Assembly: GCA_018821305.1 (NCBI GenBank)
Contig: JAHJMN010000124.1
Span: forward strand, 1 to 64,000
Length of the DNA stretch: 64,000 nucleotides
Reading direction: 5' to 3'
Source: Myxococcota bacterium
GTDB lineage: Bacteria; Myxococcota_A; Polyangia; HGW-17
A program made the translations under genes and the position numbers. The number at the start of each line of letters is the position of its first letter. Positions within the stretch are counted from its first letter, which is position 1. Positions 4,743 through 5,097 of the stretch are shown here, one piece after another. The notes below the pieces were generated by a model, which ran no database searches, was not told the origin of the DNA, and worked only from the letters and a program-made list of their open reading frames with translations.

Positions 4743-4874
4743 TGTCAAAGCATTTCTTTGAATGGCATCAAAATTAAGCAAAAGCAATATCAAGAAAATA
4801 GTCGGGATAAGCATCAGGACAACAAATGTAAACGAATTGAATCCGGCTACTGGGAAAGACTTCGAGTACTACGT

Positions 4875-5018
4875 AGTTACTGTCCTGAAATACAGTTTTT
4901 TAAATTTTTCGTCAGTTTTTGTTTCAGGACAGTAACCGCAAGGTGTAGAATTTATTAATAGTGGCCGGATAGAATTTTTAATAAAATTCTTCGCGAAGCG
5001 AATTTCCGGACACGAACT
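4875..5018 (-). repeat. Modular double-hairpin repeat, copy D (subfamily 1)
   Basis: AGTTACTGTCCTGAAATAC...CTTCGCGAAGCGAATTTCCGGACACGAACT; perfect 4-bp flanks ACGT (4871-4874) and ACGT (5019-5022). Confidence 0.95.
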
Positions 5019-5097
5019 ACGTAAATCAATCCGAAATAAAAATCCACATCGGCATCAAGTAGAAACGAGAGCAGTAAATAACCTAACAAAGTGTTGT

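What the first reader, a model, noticed from the sequence alone, without database searches (positions are those of the whole stretch)
4871..5022. Dispersed ~145-155 bp element with shared terminal inverted repeats and 4-bp target duplications
Copies A-D, F, G, I, K, M, N share imperfect terminal inverted repeats (AGTTCGTGTCCTGAAATTC at one end, AGTTACTGTCCTGAAATAC or AGTTAATGTCCTG at the other). Immediately outside the AGTT/AACT ends are identical 4-mers at copy D (ACGT/ACGT), M (AGAT/AGAT) and B (ATTT/ATTT). Copies C (CTTT/ATTT), G (ACTG/ACTT), K (ATTC/ATTT) and N (AAAA/AAAG) match 3 of 4. This is the signature of a transposed non-autonomous element. It is comparable in size to neisserial Correia elements (which duplicate TA) and differs from REPINs, which are not known for such duplications. 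No transposase is in the window.
Basis: seen in the sequence. Interest (0 to 1): 0.85.

Follow-up and report, generated by a model that had tools for sequence, protein, structure and literature searches.

The report
MITE family of an ISNCY insertion sequence
The window carries about a dozen copies of a short transposable element that cannot move by itself; it is repeated several hundred times in this bacterium's genome and is very probably copied by a transposase of the ISNCY family encoded elsewhere in the same genome, which makes it a sharp, well-resolved example of an already known kind of element.

Summary
The window holds 16 profile matches, about 11 of them near full length, to two related elements of 144 and 155 bp. 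They share the ends AGTTnnTGTCCTGAAAT. The ends occur 787 times in the 5.22-Mb genome, against 8 for a reversed-pattern control. Profile matches extrapolate to about 730 places, of which about 420 are full length.

Flanking 4-mers are identical in 44 of 71 curated copies; shuffles give about 9% and 4% in the two size classes. Abutting copies are separated by exactly 4 bp in 20 of 26 cases. Two copies lie inside another dispersed repeat that has about 50 empty paralogous hits, and the best of those show a single AATT.

I found one elsewhere: an ISNCY-family insertion sequence of about 1.7 kb, the only PF01609 gene detected in the genome. Its two different ends match the two different ends of the element almost base for base. 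ISNCY relatives from many phyla share the ends AGTknCnnTCCnnAAA and make 4-bp ANNT duplications.

Verdict: a high-copy MITE family cross-mobilised by an ISNCY insertion sequence. It is not a Correia element and not a REPIN. Unusual points are a two-foldback modular anatomy, and arrays explained by each insertion recreating its own TANNTA target.

The parts
4875..5018 (+). MITE copy D, 144-bp subfamily, full length, AC end left and CG end right
4871..4874 (.). left target duplication ACGT
5019..5022 (.). right target duplication ACGT
1..141 (-). MITE copy A, 144-bp subfamily, right end worn
1423..1563 (+). MITE copy B, 144-bp subfamily, flanks ATTT/ATTT
1622..1776 (-). MITE copy C, 155-bp subfamily, flanks CTTT/ATTT
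5095..5157 (-). solo 63-bp half element (left module only)
5649..5792 (-). MITE copy F, 144-bp subfamily
7650..7804 (-). MITE copy G, 155-bp subfamily, flanks ACTG/ACTT
24518..24665 (-). degraded chimeric copy: right module of the 155-bp type joined to the middle of the 144-bp type
28134..28281 (+). diverged 155-type copy
28758..28895 (-). diverged 144-type copy
46831..46985 (-). MITE copy K, 155-bp subfamily, flanks ATTC/ATTT
49862..50088 (+). two fragments of a 144-type copy separated by other sequence
53217..53360 (-). MITE copy M, 144-bp subfamily, flanks AGAT/AGAT
56445..56594 (+). MITE copy N, 155-bp subfamily, flanks AAAA/AAAG; G001 lacks it at the syntenic site between iPGM and T2SSE genes

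Best explanation
[quoted passage not shown] It is mobilised in trans by the transposase of an ISNCY-family insertion sequence in the same genome. The transposase binds the terminal AGTTnnTGTCCTGAAAT repeats, moves the DNA between them, and inserts it at TANNTA sites with a 4-bp staggered cut, leaving ANNT on both sides. Because the element begins with A and ends with T, each insertion turns one TANNTA target into two, so further elements (and the IS itself) can land exactly 4 bp away and build arrays. Shown from sequence: ends, 4-bp duplications, target preference, empty paralogous sites, array spacing, end-by-end identity with one IS. Inferred: that this transposase acts in trans, and the cut-and-paste or copy-out mode.
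For: Flank identity: 31 of 48 and 13 of 34 against shuffled means of 4.5 and 1.4; exact 4-bp length, target T-ANNT-A with A at position 1 in 41 of 44 and T at position 4 in 41 of 44. Empty sites: C109:26679-26822 and C67:32818-32961 lie in another repeat whose best-matching empty copies keep one AATT. Parent IS: the only PF01609 gene in the genome, 450 aa, best NCBIfam model ISNCY NF033593 at E 1.2e-87. Its left end AGTTCGTGTCCTGAAATT and right end AGTTACTGTCCTGAAATA equal the CG end and AC end of the 144-bp MITE; at least 8 left-end and 3 right-end junction contigs show several copies. Family-wide: ISNCY relatives from many phyla have ends AGTknCnnTCCnnAAA, with 4-bp identical flanks in 24 of 46 (shuffled 6.2), mostly ANNT. 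Arrays: 20 of 26 abutting TIR junctions have exactly 4 bp between them; MITE-adjacent sites make up 12% of available intergenic TANNTA sites, about the share of abutting junctions. Element and IS are both missing from the same-genus genome.
Against: The IS protein scores 294 bits, below the NF033593 equivalog cut-off of 325, so it is a divergent member. No IS copy is assembled end to end (contigs break in it), so a TSD around a complete IS copy was not seen. MITE and IS share only about 18 bp at each end, so the MITE is not a simple internal deletion of this IS. The 155-bp subfamily has AA instead of AC at one end. No transposition was observed.
Confidence: 0.93

Rival explanations
1. REPIN-like element: a pair of inverted REP palindromes moved as single-stranded DNA by a Y1 (RAYT) transposase.
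For: Each half folds back on itself, and the genome has three Y1_Tnp genes.
Against: 4-bp target duplications and double-strand TIR logic. Two of the three Y1 genes (L250, L251) lie beside a different palindromic repeat (GCGTTCGTAGAACGC / CCCAGTGCTTCAGC), and L250 has no copy of these ends; MITE copies near L251 and L252 are no closer than expected for so common an element. A DDE transposase has the same ends.
Confidence: 0.02
2. A host-maintained RNA or DNA structure element (terminator, mRNA stabiliser, nucleoid or protein-binding site) kept by selection, with mobility only in its past.
For: All 98 full-length copies in 1.23 Mb lie outside ORFs of 110 aa or more; conserved two-foldback structure with 4 covarying pairs in the right arm of the 144-bp type; weak orientation bias with tandem genes, 33 against 17.
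Against: No excess between convergent genes (13 observed, 18 expected by length). Absent from the same-genus genome. Intergenic location is expected from purifying selection against gene disruption and from AT-rich targets.
Confidence: 0.04
3. The element is moved by a second, unsampled transposase (for example of the 155-bp subfamily or the TATCCGG-ended variant) rather than by this ISNCY copy.
For: 155-bp copies end in AGTTAA rather than AGTTAC; one copy at C16:86309 has TATCCGG at one end; the assembly is 97.7% complete with 216 contigs.
Against: Only one PF01609 gene in the genome and no rve-type transposase, though other transposase families were not searched. Target and TSD length are the same for both subfamilies.
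Confidence: 0.1

Closest known systems
ISNCY-family insertion sequences of the NF033593 type (DDE_Tnp_1 with DUF772)
   Same: Terminal consensus AGTknCnnTCCnnAAA, about 1.65-1.75 kb, 4-bp ANNT duplications, FRAGVEG...ISxLKR transposase. The nearest relative, 76% identical, is in a Bacteroidales MAG contig with an identical left end.
   Different: The MITE has no ORF and shares only the terminal 18 bp or so; the local IS is a divergent member below the equivalog cut-off.
Correia / NEMIS elements of Neisseria
   Same: Size of 100-160 bp, high copy number, intergenic, inverted ends, foldback structure.
   Different: Correia duplicates TA (own knowledge); here the duplication is 4 bp and the ends and parent family differ.
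RUP of Streptococcus pneumoniae (with IS630-Spn1)
   Same: MITE proposed to be moved by an IS transposase of the same genome (PMC2229807).
   Different: IS630-type TA targets (own knowledge); here ISNCY-type TANNTA with 4-bp duplication.
ERIC elements
   Same: Similar copy numbers (711 reported in Photorhabdus luminescens, PMC10969869) and intergenic placing.
   Different: Different sequence, and no matching IS ends reported that I found.
REPINs with RAYT
   Same: Paired foldbacks; tandem arrays occur (PMC3116915).
   Different: Different transposase class; the REPIN paper does not use the term target site duplication.

Membership tests
MITE (non-autonomous DNA element) | short, no coding capacity, terminal inverted repeats | tested here: met
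   144 and 155 bp with inverted ends
MITE (non-autonomous DNA element) | target site duplication and empty sites with one copy | tested here: met
MITE (non-autonomous DNA element) | a transposase gene in the genome with the same ends | tested here: met
MITE (non-autonomous DNA element) | mobilisation in trans shown by experiment | not testable with these tools
   needs a transposition assay
ISNCY family (parent IS, NF033593) | transposase matches the family model above the curated cut-off | tested here: not met
   294 bits against a cut-off of 325; best of all models, E 1.2e-87. Treated as a divergent relative.
ISNCY family (parent IS, NF033593) | ends AGTknCnnTCCnnAAA as in relatives | tested here: met
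   AGTTCGTGTCCTGAAA and AGTTACTGTCCTGAAA
ISNCY family (parent IS, NF033593) | 4-bp ANNT duplication around a complete IS copy | tested here: inconclusive
   shown for the MITE and for relatives; for the local IS only one flank per copy is assembled
Correia element | TA target duplication | tested here: not met
   duplication is 4 bp
REPIN | association with a RAYT (Y1) gene flanked by the same repeat | tested here: not met
   of three Y1 genes, two (L250, L251) lie beside another palindromic repeat; no special association with this element

The most novel reading that the evidence does not exclude
The element is a composite built from two fused mini-elements of about 63 bp, each with its own pair of inverted ends, joined by a linker of about 20 bp. 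The inner ends have decayed but the halves are exchangeable modules that recombine to make new subfamilies, and the right module is held in a folded shape by compensatory changes, so the fold matters for mobility or for the host. Together with target regeneration this would be a self-amplifying intergenic element with a modular design not described for ISNCY.
Probability: 0.4. Interest if true: 0.5.

Novelty: new member of a known kind. Interest (0 to 1): 0.4.

Why it matters
It gives a clean case in which a very abundant bacterial MITE, its probable parent transposase, the exact duplication length, the target motif and empty sites can all be read from one genome. It assigns a target rule (TANNTA, 4-bp duplication) to a poorly described ISNCY group, and shows how a palindromic target that is recreated on insertion explains tandem arrays without any special mechanism. 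In the papers I could search I found no MITE tied to this IS group.

Tried and rejected
A search in 1.23 Mb for long TIR pairs carrying an ORF and equal 4-bp flanks found no assembled IS; the IS sits at contig breaks. Rfam: no match. Single-protein scan of named genomes: nothing; the alignment-based scan worked. Viral contigs: no internal MITE sequence; the 40 matches to the ends alone were not followed and are probably chance. Plasmids: none. Terminator function between convergent genes: no enrichment. Solo 63-bp copies as independent movers: only 2 of 29 had 4/4 flanks, so they are more likely recombination products. Literature on MITEs with ISNCY: nothing useful found.

Full report
OBSERVATION. 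The element at 4875-5018 is as described: AGTTACTGTCCTGAAATAC at the left, GAATTTCCGGACACGAACT at the right, ACGT on both sides. Profiles built from curated copies find 16 places in the window, about 11 of them near full length.

GENOME-WIDE. The window lies in a 5.22-Mb draft genome of 216 contigs. Naming by its RNase G protein puts it near uncultured Deltaproteobacteria/Myxococcota, best named hit 81%. The end pattern AGTTNNTGTCCKG occurs 395 + 392 times against 4 + 4 for the reversed control. I took 1.23 Mb as stretches. Its end density, 157 per Mb, is close to that of the genome, 151 per Mb, so the sample is fair. Profiles find 171 places there, 98 of at least 130 bp, covering 1.6% of the DNA. 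Scaled up, that is about 730 places and 420 full-length copies.

ANATOMY. There are two subfamilies. The 144-bp form is AGTTACTGTCCTGAAATAC...CTCAGGACAGTAACCGCAAGGTGTTGAA...TAGTGGCCtGtTAG...TTCGCGAAGCGAATTaCaGGACACGAACT. The 155-bp form is AGTTAATGTCCTGTAATAC...CACAGGACATTAAGAATGAAGACCTTGAAATTATTgTAGTGTTCTGAATAGCATGTTT...AATTTCAGGACACGAACT. Both have the same plan: a left half of 63 bp that begins and ends with inverted copies of the end motif, a linker of about 20 bp, and a right half that also folds back. Chimeras of the two kinds exist (C166:35432-35586; window 24518-24665), as do solo 63-bp halves. A consensus fold gives two foldbacks. In the right arm of the 144-bp type four pairs show compensatory changes (for example UA to GC at 93-133 and AU to GC at 99-114), but these are linked in sub-lineages and stand for few events.

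TARGET DUPLICATION. Flanking 4-mers are identical in 31 of 48 copies of the 144-bp class and 13 of 34 of the 155-bp class; shuffled partners give 4.5 and 1.4. Over 71 curated copies it is 44, and no 5-mers match, so the duplication is 4 bp. The duplicated tetramer is A..T in 39 of 44, preceded by T in 39 and followed by A in 37, giving a target TANNTA.

EMPTY SITES. Two insertions with AATT/AATT flanks (C109:26679-26822 and C67:32818-32961) lie within another dispersed repeat. About 50 aligned hits each, outside the insertion's own locus, match the joined flanks; the best ones, which are those printed, show one AATT at the junction. A third (C16:18625) points the same way. In the same-genus genome G001 (about 63-80% DNA identity) the pattern of ends is at background. 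The region between the aligned iPGM and T2SSE genes is 73 bp there against 229 bp here, a difference of 156 that fits the 150-bp copy N plus 4 bp; the K, M and I sites also lack the element, with less exact lengths.

PARENT. The genome has one PF01609 transposase gene, at the start of contig C216, 450 aa from its conserved Met. Its best Pfam hits are DDE_Tnp_1 and DUF772 and its best NCBIfam hit is ISNCY NF033593, 294 bits with a cut-off of 325. Its right end is CTATTTCAGGACAGTAACT followed by ATTT. The left end was recovered from eight other contig ends: AGTTCGTGTCCTGAAATTAAGTTAGCG. The two IS ends therefore differ in the same way as the two MITE ends (CG and AC after AGTT) and agree with them over about 18 bp. 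Beyond that there is no evident similarity, so the MITE is not a simple deletion of this IS copy. Several IS junctions lie 4 bp from a MITE end.

RELATIVES OF THE PARENT. Among 147 genomes of the wider class only distant relatives appear; among the relatives searched no other genome holds this IS. The nearest relative, 76% identical, is on a 2.1-kb contig of a Bacteroidales MAG with an identical left end, which suggests horizontal movement. Of the 62 of the 80 loci whose ends I examined, 50 gave a pair of ends with consensus AGTknCnnTCCnnAAA, and 24 of 46 had identical 4-bp flanks (AGCT, AATT, AGTT, AACT and the like) against 6.2 by shuffling. So the end motif and 4-bp ANNT duplication are properties of the IS family.

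ARRAYS. Where two elements abut, the spacer is exactly 4 bp in 20 cases, 0 in 5 and 6 in 1. Since the element starts with A and ends with T, insertion into TANNTA recreates TANNTA on both sides. MITE-adjacent sites are 12% of the available intergenic TANNTA sites, about equal to the share of abutting junctions (20 for 171 places). No further mechanism is needed.

CONTEXT. None of 98 full-length copies lies within an ORF of 110 aa or more. Convergent, tandem and divergent gaps hold them roughly as expected by length (13, 50, 24 against 18, 47, 22). In tandem gaps they run with the genes 33 to 17, a weak bias. Genes were called here simply as long non-overlapping ORFs. I find no support for a terminator role.

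ALTERNATIVES. Of three Y1 (RAYT-type) genes, two are associated with a different palindromic repeat, so the REPIN reading fails. No rve-type transposase was found. Correia elements duplicate TA (own knowledge). Published MITE reviews give comparable copy numbers for ERIC (711 in Photorhabdus, PMC10969869) and a comparable IS-MITE link for RUP (PMC2229807); I found no MITE assigned to ISNCY.

VERDICT. A new family of a known kind, with its probable parent found. Mobilisation in trans is inferred, not shown.

Noticed in passing
window 6090-6330 and about 50 other places in 1.23 Mb (for example C167:1-230, C106:16995-17112): A second dispersed repeat of about 240 bp with ends like TCTAGACCGCTT...AAGCGGTCTA and inner CAGGATCAGG tracts; possibly another MITE family, and a landing site for the first.
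   Followed up: partly
L250, L251 (G000 C8:13934-14281, C84:11325-11672): Two Y1 (RAYT-type) transposase genes associated with palindromes GCGTTCGTAGAACGCC / AGCCCAGTGCTTCAGCGCTGGG; looks like a separate REP/RAYT system.
   Followed up: partly
window 5649-7804: An ornithine aminotransferase gene sits between MITE copies F and G whose outer flanks are both ACTT; in G001 the gene lies elsewhere, next to genes that here are at the start of contig C167. MITE-linked relocation or recombination is possible.
   Followed up: partly
L115 (C154) and L116 (C193), just outside the IS right end: Runs of AACT repeats (up to about six) next to the IS right end; could be left by repeated insertion and loss at one site.
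   Followed up: no
window 3243-4637: A short HsdR C-terminal fragment (EcoEI_R_C) followed by a KilA-N protein: probably remains of a type I restriction locus among MITE copies.
   Followed up: no
window 713-784: Two tandem 36-bp repeats inside an ORF of unknown function.
   Followed up: no
C16:86309-86453: A copy whose left end is AGTGTCTATCCGG, with GATA/GATA flanks; may point to a second set of ends in use.
   Followed up: no
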